Shown here piece after piece: positions 10,213 through 35,211 of a stretch of DNA of 64,000 bases (position 1 is the first letter of the stretch; each line of letters starts with the position of its first letter). Source of the DNA: Terriglobia bacterium (GTDB lineage Bacteria; Acidobacteriota; Terriglobia; Terriglobales; Acidobacteriaceae); assembly GCA_020072645.1 (NCBI GenBank), contig JAIQGK010000007.1, positions 124,001 to 188,000 on the forward strand, given 5' to 3'. The position numbers and the translations under genes are program-made. The notes under the pieces were generated by a model. It did no database searches. It saw only the letters and a program-made list of their open reading frames with translations, and was not told the origin of the DNA.

Positions 10213-10991
10213 CGCTTGCCTCCCAGAAATGCCAGCAGGGTAGCGCCGAGCATCGCTCCAGCGGCGACGGCGGCAGATTGCCATGCTCTCTTTAAATAGG
10301 CGGTAGGGACCTCAGGATTCGGCGGCAGATTGTAGGTACACGGATCGCCACGCAGCAGAAACAGAGAATGTATTCCTTTAACACTGGTTGCAACGGGATC
10401 GTACACCACTGCGTCTGTTACGCCGCGCGATTTCAGAACTTCAAGTCTCGCTTTAGCTTCTTCTCTGAGCACATCTAACTCGCCAAATTTGATCGACTCT
10501 GTCGGACACGCTTTGGCACAGGCCGGCTGCAAGCCTGCCCGCTGACGGTCAGAGCAGAACGTACACTTGAACGCTCGGCCATCATCTTCATTTTTTTCAA
10601 CCACGCCAAAGGGACAAGCAACAACGCAGTATGAGCAGCCATTGCAGATATCCGGCTGAATGAACACTGCTCCAAACTCCATGCGCACGATTGCGCCCGT
10701 CGGGCATGCTTCAAGGCAGCCGGCCACTTCGCAATGCTTGCAGACGTCAGAGGAGAAGCCCCAGGCCGGCAGTTGCTCTGCAGCGTTGCCGCCGCGCCCG
10801 ATCTCTGGCGTGTTCTCCACAAACTTCACATGCCGCCACGTTGAATGTCCCACGGCCATGGTGTTGTCATAAGAATTTCCGCTCCACTCAAAGCCGTCTT
10901 CTCCGAGTTGATTCCACTCTTTGCACGCTACCTCGCAGGCCTTGCAGCCGATGCACAGCGTGGAATCCGTCAAAAATGCAGTTGTGCTCAT
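10209..10991 (-). CDS. fdhB: Formate dehydrogenase iron-sulphur (beta) subunit
   Basis: 260 residues with four ferredoxin-type Cys clusters visible in order: CIGCKACEVAC, CKHCEVAGCLEACP, CNGCSYCVVACP and CTFCSDRQ...CAKACP, enough for four [4Fe-4S] centres that wire the catalytic subunit to the membrane subunit. A C-terminal hydrophobic helix (AAVAAGAMLGATLLAFL) anchors it to the membrane, as in FdnH/FdoH. The ATG at 10991 overlaps the fdhA stop in an ATGA arrangement. Upstream open frame to 11069 lies inside fdhA and is not used. Confidence 0.93.
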   Translation of the reverse strand: MSTTAFLTDSTLCIGCKACEVACKEWNQLGEDGFEWSGNSYDNTMAVGHSTWRHVKFVENTPEIGRGGNAAEQLPAWGFSSDVCKHCEVAGCLEACPTGAIVRMEFGAVFIQPDICNGCSYCVVACPFGVVEKNEDDGRAFKCTFCSDRQRAGLQPACAKACPTESIKFGELDVLREEAKARLEVLKSRGVTDAVVYDPVATSVKGIHSLFLLRGDPCTYNLPPNPEVPTAYLKRAWQSAAVAAGAMLGATLLAFLGGKR

Positions 10992-13900
10992 GCCGTCCTC
11001 CGCAGGTCCTGTCTCCACATTTTCAATGCTTGTGCGTTCCGCGGTACGCGTCCCGGATGCGCGTTGCAAACAAGCGCCTTGGTTTCCATGATGCGCACGT
11101 TGGGTTCTTCAGAAATTGAAAGCAGATCGTTCGGCACGTCGCCGGTGACAAGCCCCTTGTAGCCGAATTGGTACGGCAGGCAGATCGTGTGCCTGAGTTT
11201 CCCATCGATCACCAGCGGCTGGTTTCGCTCAGTGATCAACGCGCGAGCTTCAATAATTCCGCGCATCGTGGTAACGGTGAGATACTCTCCGGTTCGAACT
11301 CCGATCTCTTCCGCCAACTGTGGTGAGATTTCTGCAAATAATTCCGGCTGCAGCTCCGCCAGATGCGGCAGATATCGGCTCATGCCTCCACCGGTGTGGT
11401 GTTCAGTCAATCGGTAGGTGCTCAGCAGGTAAGGGAATCGCTCGTCGCCGGCAGGAAAGGCGTACGTATTGTCGGGCCGTTCTTTCTTGTCTGCCGCGGG
11501 ATTTGTGCTGTGGTCTGGATAGAGTGGATTCGTAACAACGCTTTCCAGAGGTTCATAGTGCGTTGGCAGCGGGCCATCTTTCAGTCCGCTGGAAACCCAG
11601 ATCCATCCCACGCCGTCTGGATGCATGATGAACGGCTTGTCGCCCGCAATAGCATCATCGCCTTTAGCGCCTTTTTCTGGCCGATAGTCCGGCGCTTTAT
11701 CTTCTGTGAAATCCGCAGTGTCGTGGCCTGTCCATTTTTTTTGGTCGACGTCCCACCACACCAGCGCTTTGCGCTCGCTCCATGGCTTCCCGTCCGGACG
11801 CGCGGATGCACGGTTGTACAAAATCCGGCGATCGCTTGGCCATGCGTAGCCCCACCCGTGTCCATAGCGGCCTTTGGGCTCGCGCTTGCGCGCCTTGTTT
11901 TCTGTTGGAGAGGGCATTACTCCGGAATAAATCCAGCAGCCGCACGCTGTGGAACCATCGTTCTTTAGCTCTTTATAGCCTGAAACCAGAGTTCGGTCGC
12001 TTACGCGATAGCCGTTGATTTCGCCGATGATCTCTTCAACGTTCGGCTCGGCATGGCGCCCGTGCGTCCCGTAGTCCCATGTGAGCGCGTTTAAAGCTGC
12101 ATTGCGCGATGTCTGCTGTTTGGTTGCTCTGGCTTTCAACCTTCGTCCCAGGTGGTACATGAACCATGTTTCGCTGCGGCAATCTTCCGGCGGATCGATT
12201 GCTTTTTCGTGGAACTGCAGCAGGCGTTGCGTGTTGGTAAAACTCCCGTCTTTTTCCGCGTGACCGGCCGCGGGAAGAAAAAAGATTTCCGTCGGGATCT
12301 TTTTGGGATCAAGTTCGCCGCGGTGGACTTCTGGCGAGTCTTTCCAGAATGCGGCTGTCTCTGTTTCCACAAAGTCGCGAACGACGAGCCACTTCAGGTT
12401 GGCCAGCGCGGAACGCTCGAGTCTTCCGTTCGCCGCGCCGACCGCCGGATTCTGTCCCATCACAAAAAGACCTTCCAGTTTGCCATCGGCCATATCAAGC
12501 CAGTAACCGTATTCAGAATGGTCGCCGGTGACGCGCGGCAGAAACTGAAATCCAAATTGGTTTTCGGCAGTCGCGGCCTCTCCGTACCAGGCTTTGAGCA
12601 GGCTAATGGCGTATTTATCAAAGTGGTTCCACCAGCCTGTCTCGGAGGTATGCTTTTTCAGATAGGTGGCCAAGCTATCCGAATCGCCTTCGAAAAAGGG
12701 CATCGGCAGGTAGCCGGGCAAAATGTCATAAAGAGTTGGTATATCGGTGGAGCCCTGGATCGACGAATGGCCGCGCAAGGCCATAACGCCCCCGCCAGGA
12801 CGGCCTGTATTCCCCAGAAGTAATTGCAGGATGGCTGCCGCACGAATGATCTGCGGGCCTTTGGAATGCTGCGTCCAGCCGACGGCGTAACAGATTGCTC
12901 CCGTCCGCTCCGGACCAGAAGCGGATGTGTAAACTTCCGCAACTTCCAGAAATTTTTCTTTTGGAATGCCGCAAGAGGACTCAACCAACTCCGGCGTATA
13001 GCGGGCAAAATGTTTTTTCAGGACCTGAAAGACGCAACGCGGATTTTCCAGACCAGGATCGTCCTTATGCTCGCCCAGGTCACCCGCTTCACCGCCGCGA
13101 TCTTTGCCATGGCCCCCGCCATGTTTTGAGTGTCCTGCAAACACTCCGCCTGAGTCCTTTGACGGAGAACCTTCATAGAGCCAGGTCTTGGGGTCGTATT
13201 GCTTCTCTTCCTGGTTCCAGCCGGAAAATACGCCGCCAAGATCTTCAGTATCGCGAAAATCGTCGCGCAGCAGCGTGGATGCGTTGGTGTAATGGACTAC
13301 ATATTCGCGGAAATATTTTTCATGCGTGAGGACGTAATTGATCAGCGCGCCAAGAAAAATTATGTCTGAACCGGGCCGCAACGGCAGCCAGTAATCCGCC
13401 ATGGCCGAGGTGCGGCTGTAACGCGGATCAATGTGAATTACTTTTGCGCCCTTCTCGCGCGCTTCCATCACCCACTGGAACCCGACGGGATGATTCTCCG
13501 CCATGGACGAACCCATGATCAGGATCGCGTCAGAATATTGCAGGTCCTGTTGGGCGGTGGTTGCTCCGCCGCGACCGTAAGATGTGCCCAGACCGGGCAC
13601 CGTGGAGCTGTGTCATATTCGGGCCTGGTTGCTGATGCAAACCATGCCTAGACCGCCGGTAAACATTTTTTTGATCAGGTAATTTTCTTCGTTATCCAGC
13701 GTGGCGCCGCCCAGATGCGCTACCGCTTTGGTCTGCATCAGGGTTTGTCCATCCTGCTTTTCAACAAATGACCGTTCTCGCGCATCCCAGAGCCGGTCAG
13801 CGATCATGTCCATGGCCGTTTCAAGATCAAGGCTTTCCCACTTCTTGCTGAACGGCTTACGGTACTTCATCTTCAGTTCGCGATTTGCATGGGTCAGGAG

Positions 13901-14173
13901 CTCAAAGCTGTCGGCTCCTTTGGGGCAGAGTCGTCCGCGGGAGATGGGAGACTCAGGATCGCCTTCAATGGAAACCAGCTTGTTGTTTTTGTGGTAAACC
14001 AGTTGACCGCAGCCCACGCCGCAATACGGACAGACGGAACGCGCCACTTCAGCACCAGCCGTGCGCGGCCCCAGACTGTGGGTCTTGTCAGACATGGCTT
14101 CCGCGCCAGTTCCGTCTCCACCTGTCTGGATTTGTTTAACGACTGGCCAGCGCGCAAGCAGCTCCCGGAGCAT
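10988..14173 (-). CDS. fdhA: Selenocysteine-containing formate dehydrogenase catalytic subunit (Sec187, in-frame UGA)
   Basis: About 1061 residues when the UGA at 13615-13613 is read as selenocysteine. The N-terminal [4Fe-4S] motif is C48-x2-C51-x3-C55 ... C83 (CPYCGVGC, RLCPKG). Just before the UGA is ISNQARI and just after it HSSTVPGLG, which aligns with the NQAR-Sec-H active site of FdnG/FdhF-type enzymes, where Sec ligates Mo/W. Homology continues past the UGA (MGSSMAENHPVGFQW) to a molybdopterin-dinucleotide C-terminal domain. The SECIS hairpin follows directly. The start at ATG 14173 has GAGGGG ten bases upstream. There is no twin-arginine signal at the N-terminus, unlike E. coli FdnG/FdoG. 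It oxidises formate or reduces CO2. Gene callers would split it into two ORFs. Confidence 0.95.
13584..13615 (-). promoter_or_regulatory. UGA selenocysteine codon with bacterial SECIS hairpin in fdhA
   Basis: Downstream of the UGA (13615-13613) the mRNA can form the stem GTGCCC / GGGCAC with apical loop GGTCT. The loop occupies nucleotides 22-26 counted from the U of UGA. From memory of the E. coli fdhF SECIS, both the GGUCU loop and its distance from the UGA are the same there, which is the SelB recognition element. Confidence 0.9.
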
Positions 14174-14372
14174 CTTTTTTTGTCCCCTCAAGTTGTGAGG
14201 AGCGATTGTTTAAGCGGGTTGCCTCGCGGCGGGCACGGTTGCATCGCAATACGATCTAATATGCCCCGACTTCCCACTTCTGCATACCGGAACAAAATTA
14301 AGAAGCAGCAGAAACCGGATTAAAAAGTAGTACAAATTGGCAATTGCTTTTTTATTGCAAAGGAGAATTCCC

Positions 14373-23631: not shown

Positions 23632-24867
23632 CTAATGCGTTGGAACTCGCTGTCTATTGAGCAATCCAGTCATCGCCCAGATTCCGAGCAATGGTCCTAG
23701 CGCCATGCTTGCCAGTGCCCAGTTCCATCCGTAGAGCGCCGCAATGGCTGCCATCAAGCGGATGACAAAAGCTGTCAACAGAAATCCCAACGCTACCTGG
23801 CAGGTCAGCGCCGTCCCGACGTAGTTTTTATCCGATACCTCACTAATTATGGTGGAGAATTGCGCTGAATCGGCAATGACCGCTATTCCCCAGATCAGGG
23901 AAAGTGGAATCAGAATCATCGGTCGATGCAGAACCAGTGCAGCCAGCACGCAACATACAGAGCTGATGGCCATGGCAATAATGGTTACGCGTGCGCGCTG
24001 CGCCACGCGTATGCCAGCCGCCTGGTCCTGCAATTTATCACTAGCTGCCCCGGCCCAGATGCAGCCAACTGCTCCAATAGCTATTGCTAATGCGGCCATG
24101 GTTTCAAACATTGAGCGGGACCACGCCGCTGACACTGAAAAGATCACGGCGATCCATCCCCACATGGAATAGAGCTCCCACATGTGACCGAGATAGCCAA
24201 GATTAGCGAGTCGTAATGGTCTGTTACGGACAATCTCAAGAATCTGCGCTGGATCAAAGCGCGATTGCGGCATGGCATACGGCCCTTGGCGAACCGCCAA
24301 AGCAACAATCAAAGCGCCCAGCAATGCTTGCGCGCTTCCTAGCAGGATCACGCCCTGCCAGGGAACTCTGCCTAAAGCATTCACGGCATGGGGCACCGCC
24401 GATCCAACCGTCAGCGCGCCAATCATTATCCCGAGAGCCAGACCACGTCCGCGCTGGAACCACCCTGCAATAATCTTCATCCCTACGGGATAAACACCGG
24501 CCAGGAAGAATCCTGTAGCGCCTCGCAGCAGAATGGCTGGAAGTGGTTGCGCGGCTAAAAAAGCAAACGCGGCATTGGCAGCCGCTGCCGCAATGGCAGA
24601 AACAACCAGAACTTTAATTGGACTAAAAACATCGGGAATATTGAACAGCGCAAAAGTGATTGCTCCGACAGAAAATCCAATTTGCACCGCAATCGTAAGC
24701 CATGATCCCAGCGCCAGCCCCGAATGCCAGAGTGTTGTGATCTGCGGAATCACGGCGGTCCCGGTGAACCACAGTGACATGGCCAGCAAAATGGAAACTG
24801 AAAGCAAAAAAAGTGCCCGCCGGGATGAAAGTCCCTGGCGGGCTTCTGTCTGAACCGTTACAGGCAT
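23632..24867 (-). CDS. Major facilitator superfamily transporter
   Basis: 411 residues with about twelve hydrophobic helices and a cytoplasmic loop between helices 6 and 7. Helices 4-5 include GATGFFLAGVYPVGMKI and the following loop WFQRGRGLALG, resembling the nitrate/cyanate-like or YNFM branches of MFS. Substrate cannot be read from sequence. It starts one base upstream of the peroxiredoxin stop codon, so the two genes are likely cotranscribed, with the peroxiredoxin first. Confidence 0.85.
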   Translation of the reverse strand: MPVTVQTEARQGLSSRRALFLLSVSILLAMSLWFTGTAVIPQITTLWHSGLALGSWLTIAVQIGFSVGAITFALFNIPDVFSPIKVLVVSAIAAAAANAAFAFLAAQPLPAILLRGATGFFLAGVYPVGMKIIAGWFQRGRGLALGIMIGALTVGSAVPHAVNALGRVPWQGVILLGSAQALLGALIVALAVRQGPYAMPQSRFDPAQILEIVRNRPLRLANLGYLGHMWELYSMWGWIAVIFSVSAAWSRSMFETMAALAIAIGAVGCIWAGAASDKLQDQAAGIRVAQRARVTIIAMAISSVCCVLAALVLHRPMILIPLSLIWGIAVIADSAQFSTIISEVSDKNYVGTALTCQVALGFLLTAFVIRLMAAIAALYGWNWALASMALGPLLGIWAMTGLLNRQRVPTH

Positions 24868-25452
24868 CTAGCCTTTGAGCTTCCGGCGTTCGCAGGAGGT
24901 CACAACGGCGGTAGGATCAATAGCTTCGCGATCCATTTGCATCTCCAGAACCTTGCCTTCCTTATCCAGCAGGAAGGTCACCCGGCGTGCGTGATGTTGT
25001 GTCGTGTAAATGCCGAGTTCTTTGGTAAAGTTTCCCTCCCAATCACTCAAGATGGGGAACTTGATTCCTTCTTTTTCCGCCCATGCAGCGTTGCTGAAAG
25101 GGCTGTCCATACTTACACCCAGTACCTGGGTGTCTGCAGCTTCCAGTTTTTGCAGGTTCTTCTGGAAGTTCTGCATCTCCGCGGTTCAACCAGGGGTGAA
25201 GGCGAAAAAAACAAATGCGACCGCAACATTCTTCTTACCTTTGAAGTCGTGCAGAGAGACTTTATTCCGATTCTGGTCGATGAGAGTAAAATCAGGGAAG
25301 GTATCGCCCACTTTGACCTTGGGCTCAGGCTGCGCCGGGGGCGCCTCTTTTTTTTCTTCTTTCTTATCGCTTTGCGAAAACAAGCTGGTTCCGGCAGTTG
25401 GCCCCAGCAGCGCTAGCGTTCCCAACATTTGGACGGCAGTTCTTCTACGCAT
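24868..25452 (-). CDS. Exported selenocysteine peroxiredoxin (AhpC/TSA family, Sec89 from in-frame UGA)
   Basis: 194 residues when UGA 25188-25186 is read as Sec. The sequence before it is VAFVFFAFTPG and after it TAEMQNFQ, so the UGA stands exactly where the peroxidatic Cys of the FTPGCT motif belongs in PrxQ/AhpC-type peroxiredoxins. Homology continues on both sides (KVGDTFPDFTLIDQ before; VLGVSMDSPFSNAAW, RRVTFLLDKEGKV after). The N-terminus MRRRTAVQMLGTLALLG looks like a twin-arginine signal, so the folded protein may be exported. No resolving Cys follows at +5; a Cys lies in TSCERRK near the C-terminus. A nonsense mutation is the alternative, but another Sec gene lies in the same window. 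Confidence 0.82.
25151..25188 (-). promoter_or_regulatory. UGA codon and candidate SECIS hairpin in the peroxiredoxin gene
   Basis: From nucleotide 14 to 38 after the U of UGA the RNA can pair TGCAG with CTGCA, then CTT with AAG around a CCAG loop at nucleotides 24-27. The position suits a bacterial SECIS; the loop differs from the GGUCU of fdhA, so confidence is moderate. Confidence 0.5.
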
Positions 25453-25585
25453 TAGTTCTTCCTCCGCATGAATGCTGCACGGTAAGCCTAAATTTATGCA
25501 ATGAGTACGTCAATAGCGAAGCGCAACCTAATGGGCCAGCAACTTTGCGCCAACTGGGTGTTAGTATTTGGCGGAGATAATTCCA

Positions 25586-34713: not shown

Positions 34714-35211
34714 CTATAGCTTCTGCAGGTACTCCACGATCTCCGGGCTGGTCCAGTTCTCCGCGAGCACAAACTTGCGGCGAACCACGCCTTTGCGATC
34801 GATGATAGTCGTTTCCGGATAACCTGTGGCCCCATACAGGTTGTAGCTGTCTTTAGCTGAGTCGAGCACAGTCAGGAAGTCAATACCGTGCTTTTGCAGA
34901 AAGGCGTGGTACTCGTCATTCGTGGCATCTACTGCTACGCCCACCACGGTGATCTTGTCACCCATGCGCTTCTGTAATTGCACCAGGGAAGGCATTTCCG
35001 CGATACAAGGCGCGCAATGCGGCGACCAGAAATTCAATACCACTATCTTGCCCCGGTAGTCATGGAGGGAGACTTTGCGGTCGGTATCCTGCACGGTGAA
35101 ATCCGGGGCCTGTGAGCCGATAAAGCGCAATTTGGGCTGATCATTGCAGCCAACGCAGCCTGCCAAAACTGCCGCCAGAAGGACCGGAATTAGAATTCGA
35201 AAGGGCTTCAC
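34714..35211 (-). CDS. TlpA/ResA-like thiol-disulphide lipoprotein
   Basis: 165 residues. A lipoprotein signal (KPFRILIPVLLAAVLAGC, lipobox LAGC) is followed by a thioredoxin-fold AhpC/TSA-Redoxin domain with active site C-A-P-C in NFWSPHCAPCIAEMPS. TlpA/ResA relatives keep periplasmic thiols reduced, for example during cytochrome c maturation. The start is taken as GTG 35211, where the signal peptide begins; ATG 35253 would overlap the divergent gene. A TATTAT hexamer ends 6 bp before this GTG, so the mRNA may be nearly leaderless. Confidence 0.88.
   Translation of the reverse strand: MKPFRILIPVLLAAVLAGCVGCNDQPKLRFIGSQAPDFTVQDTDRKVSLHDYRGKIVVLNFWSPHCAPCIAEMPSLVQLQKRMGDKITVVGVAVDATNDEYHAFLQKHGIDFLTVLDSAKDSYNLYGATGYPETTIIDRKGVVRRKFVLAENWTSPEIVEYLQKL

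What the first reader, a model, noticed from the sequence alone, without database searches (positions are those of the whole stretch)
24868..25452. Second selenoprotein: an apparently Tat-exported peroxiredoxin with Sec in place of the peroxidatic cysteine
The UGA at 25188-25186 replaces the Cys of the FTPGCT motif, and homology is unbroken on both sides. A twin-arginine-like N-terminus (MRRRTAVQML) would send a folded selenoenzyme to the periplasm, which is rare. A possible SECIS hairpin (TGCAG...CTGCA with CCAG loop) starts 11 nt after the UGA.
Basis: partly seen in the sequence, partly recalled or inferred. Interest (0 to 1): 0.88.

Follow-up and report, generated by a model that had tools for sequence, protein, structure and literature searches.

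The report
Exported selenium-containing peroxiredoxin of Acidobacteriota
A soil-type bacterium carries a gene for an enzyme that probably breaks down peroxides outside its inner membrane, with the rare amino acid selenocysteine at the active site; many related bacteria share it, and it is a new branch of a known kind of enzyme.

Summary
The selenoprotein reading holds. Window 25452-24868 (-) is one 194-residue peroxiredoxin read through UGA 25188-25186. The genome has selA, selB, selC and selD. In the 60 best of a phylum search's matches the only inner stop is one TGA. Cysteine orthologues also exist: 15 of the 150 matches listed in a class search.

The protein belongs to an unnamed Acidobacteriota group. 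Of 72 Sec members read, 72 have a hydrophobic N-terminal stretch (9 of 33 other rows do) and a C-terminal Cys (C187 here, part of the grouping), and 53 lack the Pro of the PxxxTxxC motif (here Phe). Best mechanism: a periplasmic selenol peroxidase, possibly resolved by C187 (inferred).

Two details change. Hairpin stability follows Sec rather than Cys, though covariation near this gene is weak and the published SECIS model is met only marginally here. Twin-arginine export is undecided: MRRRTAV occurs in 5 of 72, and Tat-exported selenoproteins are not unusual (recalled). Variant of a known kind, of moderate interest.

The parts
24868..25452 (-). CDS of the exported selenoperoxiredoxin, 194 residues read through UGA; stop TAG 24870-24868
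   Evidence: one gene by homology on both sides and by Cys orthologues with an open frame
25186..25188 (-). UGA codon, residue 89, read as selenocysteine (peroxidatic position)
25461..25465 (-). GGAGG, likely ribosome-binding site, 8 nt before ATG
   Evidence: sequence; GGAGG also lies shortly before the start in L001, L002, L006, L065
25375..25452 (-). signal peptide, residues 1-26 (MRRRTAV plus hydrophobic stretch); cleavage site inferred
25135..25175 (-). SECIS-like hairpin: TGCAG, AA bulge, CTTCCAG, 15-nt loop, CTGGAAG, CTGCA (12 bp)
   Evidence: -14.3 kcal/mol, 0 of 400 synonymous recodings as stable; published bSECIS model met only marginally
   Evidence: not conserved, -5.6 kcal/mol
24892..24894 (-). 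Cys187 codon, conserved C-terminal Cys; possible resolving partner of Sec89 (inferred)
   Evidence: invariant in the 12 rows; in the 72 Sec rows and the 15 Cys rows (rows are grouped by it)
24982..24984 (-). Arg157 codon, likely catalytic Arg of peroxiredoxins
   Evidence: Arg in 72 of 72
25207..25209 (-). Phe82 codon, in the place of the Pro of PxxxTxxC
   Evidence: Pro absent in 53 of 72
23632..24867 (-). MFS transporter gene whose ATG abuts the stop of the peroxiredoxin; probable same operon
   Evidence: next to the relative's gene in L001, L002, L006, L065

Best explanation
The gene makes a selenocysteine-containing peroxiredoxin that is exported across the inner membrane and reduces peroxides in the periplasm. 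Shown by sequence: UGA89 is an old, conserved sense codon; the genome has the genes to decode it; a hairpin after it is more stable than synonymous recodings; the protein has the AhpC/TSA fold with Thr86 and Arg157; it has a hydrophobic N-terminal signal and a conserved C-terminal Cys. Inferred: SelB and tRNA-Sec insert Sec at UGA with the help of the hairpin; the chain is exported (by Sec, or by Tat in this genus); the selenolate of U89 attacks peroxide to give a selenenic acid; Cys187, of the same or a partner subunit, attacks that to form an Se-S bond; a periplasmic thioredoxin-like reductant (TlpA or DsbD type) restores it. The last two steps are the least certain.
For: TGA in the same column in 11 of 11 near relatives; one inner stop, a TGA, in 60 of 60 best matches in the phylum. 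In the 72 Sec members read: Arg in the R157 column and Thr or Ser at -3 in 72, hydrophobic N-terminal stretch in 72 against 9 of 33 other rows under the same rule. Cys orthologues: 15 of 150 listed matches in a class search have no stop; all 15 were fetched and carry TGC or TGT at the site and the C-terminal Cys. selC 73.9 bits, selB 387.9, selA 550.5, selD 239.6, all over cut-off. dN 0.16-0.29 against dS 0.9-1.7 or saturated after the UGA, five relatives. Hairpin. Control: median z of the recoding test is -1.5 in 71 distinct Sec regions of the group and -2.37 in 13 other Sec regions, against 0.02 in 15 Cys regions of the group and -0.54 in 21 other Cys regions; 28 of 71, 8 of 13, 0 of 15 and 2 of 21 at <= 0.05. 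In 46 distant members TAT/GAT changes to TAC/GGT, keeping a pair at the price of Asp to Gly. Fold: AhpE Z 18.2 over 135 residues.
Against: No Se chemistry was measured. For this gene the hairpin has a 15-nt loop that starts AA; the form that fits the published bSECIS model reaches only -7.7 kcal/mol with a single closing pair. Covariation among the 19 near sequences is weak: one or two pairs changed on both sides, no more than shuffles give. L003-L005 have z of only -1.04 to -1.43; 12 of 19 reach <= 0.05. The Pro of PxxxTxxC is Phe here. Four of 59 family genomes gave no selA hit (G140, G226, G266, G314; 91, 77, 72 and 88% complete). The AlphaFold model is poor around U89 and C187 (pLDDT near 50), so the resolving role of C187 is untested. 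None of the four neighbouring genes scanned is a reductase.
Confidence: 0.8

Rival explanations
1. Exported selenoperoxiredoxin that works as a 1-Sec enzyme, like AhpE: the selenenic acid is reduced directly by a small thiol or thioredoxin-like protein, and the C-terminal Cys has another role (dimer contact, structure).
For: Closest solved fold is the 1-Cys AhpE. The C-terminal helix with C187 is poorly predicted, so no contact with residue 89 is shown.
Against: C187 is invariant in the 12 rows although the sequence around it varies, and is present in 72 Sec and 15 Cys rows of the group (the rows were grouped by this feature, so the count is not an independent test; the second copy in L172, Sec, has no Cys in the column).
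Confidence: 0.3
2. The UGA is a true stop: the gene is decayed or makes an 88-residue exported piece, with a separate product from ATG 25176.
For: An ORF of 102 aa starts at 25176. For this gene the SECIS model is met only marginally.
Against: Only TGA, never TAA or TAG, breaks the 60 best matches of a search that reads through all stops; dN/dS well below 1 after the TGA; Cys orthologues with open frames; sel genes present; six other TGA-interrupted redox, SelD or FdhA frames in the same genome.
Confidence: 0.03
3. The UGA is a sequencing error for a Cys or Trp codon.
For: None found; reads were not available.
Against: Assemblies of many species carry the same TGA.
Confidence: 0.01
4. Export in this genus is by Tat, as the first reader proposed (a sub-question of the main reading).
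For: MRRRTAV is kept in five genes with synonymous changes, while the hydrophobic part differs in L002 and L065; hydrophobicity of this gene's h-region is low (1.66) for the group; tatC is present, 191.5 bits.
Against: Ala where Phe or another hydrophobic residue is usual, two places after RR (consensus recalled); L002 and L065 have strongly hydrophobic h-regions (3.13, 2.69), as for Sec; L003-L005, which fall beside L065 in the tree, have ordinary signal peptides without RR; no Tat model matched (no positive control run); 65 of 72 members lack RR.
Confidence: 0.4

Closest known systems
Sec-containing peroxiredoxins (PrxU of Eubacterium acidaminophilum; 'Peroxiredoxin TxxU' entry of PMC13188914, passages seen; PrxU biochemistry recalled)
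   Same: Thioredoxin fold, TxxU active site, Sec in place of the peroxidatic Cys
   Different: NCBIfam PrxU model scores 59.1 against a cut-off of 270; here a signal peptide, a C-terminal Cys 98 residues after Sec, and in 53 of 72 members no motif Pro
AhpE, 1-Cys peroxiredoxin of Mycobacterium tuberculosis (5id2, 1xxu, 4x0x)
   Same: Closest solved sequence and fold: phmmer 1.7e-21, Z 18.2, 34% identity over 135 residues
   Different: AhpE has Cys and the motif Pro (alignment) and is classed as a 1-Cys enzyme; AhpE-like Cys rows (my label, e.g. L012) sit in another part of the trees
Cys forms of the same group (L155-L169)
   Same: TxxC site and C-terminal Cys in 15 of 15; a signal peptide can be read in 13 of 15
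   Different: Cys codon and no sign of a selected hairpin after it; nine of 15 keep the motif Pro; L160 and L169 show no signal peptide
Sec AhpE-like family without signal peptide (WTPVUT, e.g. L125, L133; own genome C12:82840)
   Same: Acidobacteriota, Sec at the same column
   Different: No C-terminal Cys; 11 of the 12 Sec rows without that Cys keep the motif Pro

Membership tests
Bacterial selenoprotein gene | In-frame UGA aligned with catalytic Cys or Sec, homology on both sides | tested here: met
Bacterial selenoprotein gene | selA, selB, selC, selD in the genome | tested here: met
   best matches over cut-off
Bacterial selenoprotein gene | bSECIS: loop 3-9 nt with G in first two, upper stem 4-16 bp, spacing 16-37 nt, MFE <= -7.5 (PMC13188914, passage seen) | tested here: inconclusive
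   Best hairpin has a 15-nt loop; a fold that fits exists at -7.7 with one closing pair; L001 and L006 fit at -15.1, and distant members fit
Bacterial selenoprotein gene | Selenium in the protein | not testable with these tools
   needs 75Se or mass spectrometry
Peroxiredoxin (AhpC/TSA) | AhpC/TSA domain and fold | tested here: met
   PF00578 117.2 bits, cut-off 26; PDB matches
Peroxiredoxin (AhpC/TSA) | Thr/Ser at -3 and catalytic Arg | tested here: met
   T86, R157; 72 of 72 members
Peroxiredoxin (AhpC/TSA) | Pro of PxxxTxxC/U | tested here: not met
   Phe82 here; Pro absent in 53 of 72. Filed as a divergent member of the AhpC/TSA superfamily by domain and fold, not as a canonical PxxxTxxC enzyme
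PrxU (NF040737) | Score over the curated cut-off | tested here: not met
   59.1 against 270
AhpE / 1-Cys peroxiredoxin | No second conserved Cys | tested here: not met
   C187 invariant in 12 of 12 aligned relatives
2-Cys peroxiredoxin | Resolving Cys forms a bond with the peroxidatic residue | not testable with these tools
   C187 is conserved, but its contact is untested; the model is poor there
Tat substrate | SRRxFLK-type motif with h-region (consensus recalled) | tested here: inconclusive
   RRRTAV with Ala in the Phe place; conserved in 5; no model hit; tatC present

The most novel reading that the evidence does not exclude
An unnamed family of periplasmic Sec-Cys peroxidases: the Prx active site has mostly lost its Pro, Sec89 is resolved by a conserved C-terminal Cys through an Se-S bond, the family has exchanged Sec and Cys several times within one phylum, and one genus has put the folded selenoenzyme on the Tat route.
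Probability: 0.25. Interest if true: 0.65.

Novelty: new variant of a known kind. Interest (0 to 1): 0.5.

Why it matters
Selenoperoxiredoxins are known; the 2006 survey links Sec forms of Prx to low oxygen (PMC1794560, passages seen). Here a Sec form is common in Acidobacteriota (60 matches in 59 of 396 genomes sampled) and carries an export signal, which raises the question of how a selenol is kept reduced in the periplasm. The group gives natural Sec/Cys pairs with and without the RNA hairpin, a clean set for learning what SelB of these bacteria reads. No NCBIfam model passes its cut-off for the window protein, so such genes may well be annotated as broken (inference).

Tried and rejected

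2. An energy test on bases 7-42 after the UGA gave z -0.98 for this gene, with 26% of recodings as stable, no support; that window cut off the 3' arm. The longer window changed the result. Both are reported.

3. 'The group is always Sec': held in the phylum sample (60 of 60 down to 9.6e-41) but refuted by the denser class sample (15 of 150 listed matches without a stop; all Cys).

4. Monophyly of the group: not shown. Outlying rows (L109, L127, L105, L108, the f48 rows) move between the two trees. Direction of the Sec/Cys changes was not established.

5. Contact between U89 and C187: not testable on the model.

6. Other phyla: not surveyed with the profile. The genome-contig search used peptide patterns from this protein. 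Of its 34 loci, L001-L015 were classified: TGA forms in L001-L011, all Acidobacteriota; Cys in L012-L015. L016-L034 (mostly short, weak matches) were not classified. So absence elsewhere is not shown.

7. Literature searches. None listed an exported acidobacterial selenoperoxiredoxin; most subscription papers and all supplements were out of reach. Papers seen: PMC1794560, PMC13188914, PMC12013277 as found passages; all others as search listings with the start of the abstract.

9. Rows dropped: of the matches, 90 were fetched (30 loci, 60 regions) and weaker ones left out; the last 20 regions were picked by hand with TGA-bearing rows preferred, so the 12 and 21 rows outside the group are not frequencies. 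In the tree, 16 near-copies and 16 of 33 outside rows were left out.

Full report
What is there. On the minus strand, ATG 25452 to TAG 24868 is a 195-codon reading broken only by TGA at 25188-25186. With the TGA read as Cys or Sec the product is an AhpC/TSA protein: PF00578 E 5.6e-34, PF08534 E 7.8e-28. No NCBIfam model passes its cut-off. The closest solved proteins are AhpE of M. tuberculosis (phmmer 1.7e-21; Foldseek 6.8e-14; VIA-align Z 18.2, 135 residues, 34% identity). The AlphaFold model behind the fold matches has mean pLDDT 72.6 and is poor at residues 84-89 and at the C-terminus.

The TGA is a sense codon. The genome has tRNA-Sec (73.9 bits), SelB (387.9), SelA (550.5) and SelD (239.6, with a piece across its own TGA), all over their cut-offs. 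In 11 of 11 close acidobacterial relatives the column is TGA. In 396 genomes of the phylum all 60 matches down to E 9.6e-41 hold exactly one inner stop, a TGA, in a search that reads through all three stops; the next match (1.5e-40) has none and is a Cys protein without the C-terminal Cys. Of the 59 genomes with such a match, 55 have selA at E <= 1e-60; the other four are 72-91% complete. After the TGA, dN is 0.16-0.29 and dS 0.9 or more against five relatives. The same genome holds six more TGA-interrupted frames of Sec-using types.

Cys orthologues exist. A denser class sample (399 genomes) listed its 150 best matches: 135 with an in-frame TGA (one of them with a TAG too) and 15 without a stop. 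Weaker matches were not listed, so the overall share of Cys forms is unknown. All 15 were fetched: each has TGC or TGT at the site and a C-terminal Cys; 13 show a signal peptide, L160 and L169 do not. They fall in families f2, f93, f91 and f90; the tree needs five changes of the Cys label, at least three forced by well-supported branches. The direction of change was not tested. This corrects the first impression from the phylum sample that the group is always Sec.

Anatomy of the group. Of 105 rows read, 72 are Sec with a C-terminal Cys, 12 Sec without it, 21 Cys without it (the rows outside the group were partly picked by hand). Of the 72, all have a 12-residue stretch of mean hydropathy 1.6 or more before the domain; under the same rule 9 of the other 33 do. 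All 72 have Arg in the column of R157 and Thr or Ser at -3, and 53 lack the Pro at -7, which is Phe82 here. A recent review calls PxxxTxxU highly conserved in Sec peroxiredoxins (PMC13188914, passage), so this is a departure. Neither tree shows the group as one clade.

The hairpin near this gene. The same 5' arm pairs with the next CTGCA, 25139-25135, enclosing CTTCCAG/CTGGAAG: 12 bp, -14.3 kcal/mol, as stable in 0 of 400 synonymous recodings, z -2.66. The inner seven pairs form in 97% of cells (shuffles 95.9%, 41 of 500 as high), the twelve in 84.2% (shuffles 80.7%, 1 of 500). Covariation is weak: one and two pairs changed on both sides, which shuffles often reach (198 and 469 of 500). All 19 sequences have negative z, -1.04 to -3.26, and 12 of 19 reach <= 0.05; L003-L005 are the weakest.

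The hairpin elsewhere. In 46 distant members (36 distinct) a compact hairpin with a GGC or GTC loop in most lies at the same place: 87.7% of cells paired against 78.8% in shuffles, 24 cells changed on both sides against 6.5, none of 500 shuffles as high for either; the number of pairs changed on both sides (4) is reached by 88 of 500. The pair of columns 24 and 32 is U-A in 28 and C-G in 8 of 36 rows, and the C-G form changes Asp to Gly to keep the pair. As a control, the recoding z has median -1.5 in 71 distinct Sec regions of the group, -2.37 in 13 other Sec regions, 0.02 in 15 Cys regions of the group and -0.54 in 21 other Cys regions; 28, 8, 0 and 2 of these reach <= 0.05. Sec against Cys within the group gives Mann-Whitney p 2.8e-6, Sec of the group against other Cys 0.0016; rows are related, so p is only a guide.

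Against the SECIS of this gene: its loop is 15 nt and begins AA, so the published model (PMC13188914) is met only by a marginal fold of -7.7; L001 and L006, which have GC where this gene has AA, fit at -15.1. The review itself says that some bSECIS elements do not fit the model.

Export route. MRRRTAV is found in this gene, L001, L002, L006 and L065, with silent codon changes in the motif; the hydrophobic part is shared by this gene, L001 and L006 and different in L002 and L065. That suggests selection on the motif. But L002 and L065 have strongly hydrophobic cores (3.13 and 2.69), L003-L005, which lie beside L065 in one tree, have ordinary signal peptides without RR, 65 of 72 members lack RR, and no Tat model matched (no positive control run). 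tatC is present. I leave the route open. Tat-exported selenoproteins such as E. coli FdnG are known (recalled), so Tat would not be extraordinary.

Surroundings. The stop abuts the ATG of an MFS transporter (23632-24867), and the pair is kept in L001, L002, L006 and L065; a SIMPL-domain gene and a Band-7 gene lie upstream in L001, L006 and L065. The MFS gene was not matched in the other 36 loci searched, most of which hold only about 1.5 kb on each side. None of the four neighbours scanned is a reductase.

How it most likely works. The selenolate of U89, placed by Thr86 and Arg157, reduces peroxide in the periplasm; the oxidised Se may be resolved by C187; a thioredoxin-like periplasmic protein closes the cycle. 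Location and catalytic residues follow from sequence; resolution and reductant are inference.

Verdict. A real selenoprotein, an exported and somewhat divergent kind of selenoperoxiredoxin, common in Acidobacteriota. I found no description of it in the library searched, which lacks most subscription papers.

Noticed in passing
window 10991-14209 (-): Formate dehydrogenase alpha subunit with in-frame UGA (13615-13613...NQARIUHSS...); the hairpin after it has a GGTCT loop, like the E. coli fdhF SECIS (recalled).
   Followed up: partly
own genome: L053, L054, L055, L058, L063: Five further TGA-interrupted frames of Sec-using types: AhpE-like DWSPTUT, Bcp-like TPGUTIEACGF, Prx-like YWUPFC, WASWUGC thioredoxin-like, and SelD (AAGUASK); with FdhA and this gene at least seven candidate selenoproteins.
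   Followed up: partly
L125, L126, L128, L131-L133, L149, L151-L153: A second Sec peroxiredoxin family (WTPVUT type) without the C-terminal Cys and without an evident signal peptide, also in Acidobacteriota, beside Cys relatives.
   Followed up: partly
L170, L171, L172 (family f90): Two Sec-peroxiredoxin genes close together on one strand; for L172 the match to the second copy holds an additional TAG.
   Followed up: no
window 25133-25115 (-): A perfect 8-bp hairpin with a GTA loop directly after the SECIS-like hairpin; too far from the UGA for the published model, conservation not tested.
   Followed up: no
L085, L087 and the f48 loci L110-L123: Asp to Gly change that keeps a base pair of the hairpin (TAT/GAT to TAC/GGT): the RNA may have driven an amino-acid change.
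   Followed up: yes
window near 34861-35139 (-): TlpA/ResA-like probable lipoprotein with CAPC about 10 kb away; a candidate periplasmic reductant, no evidence for a link.
   Followed up: no
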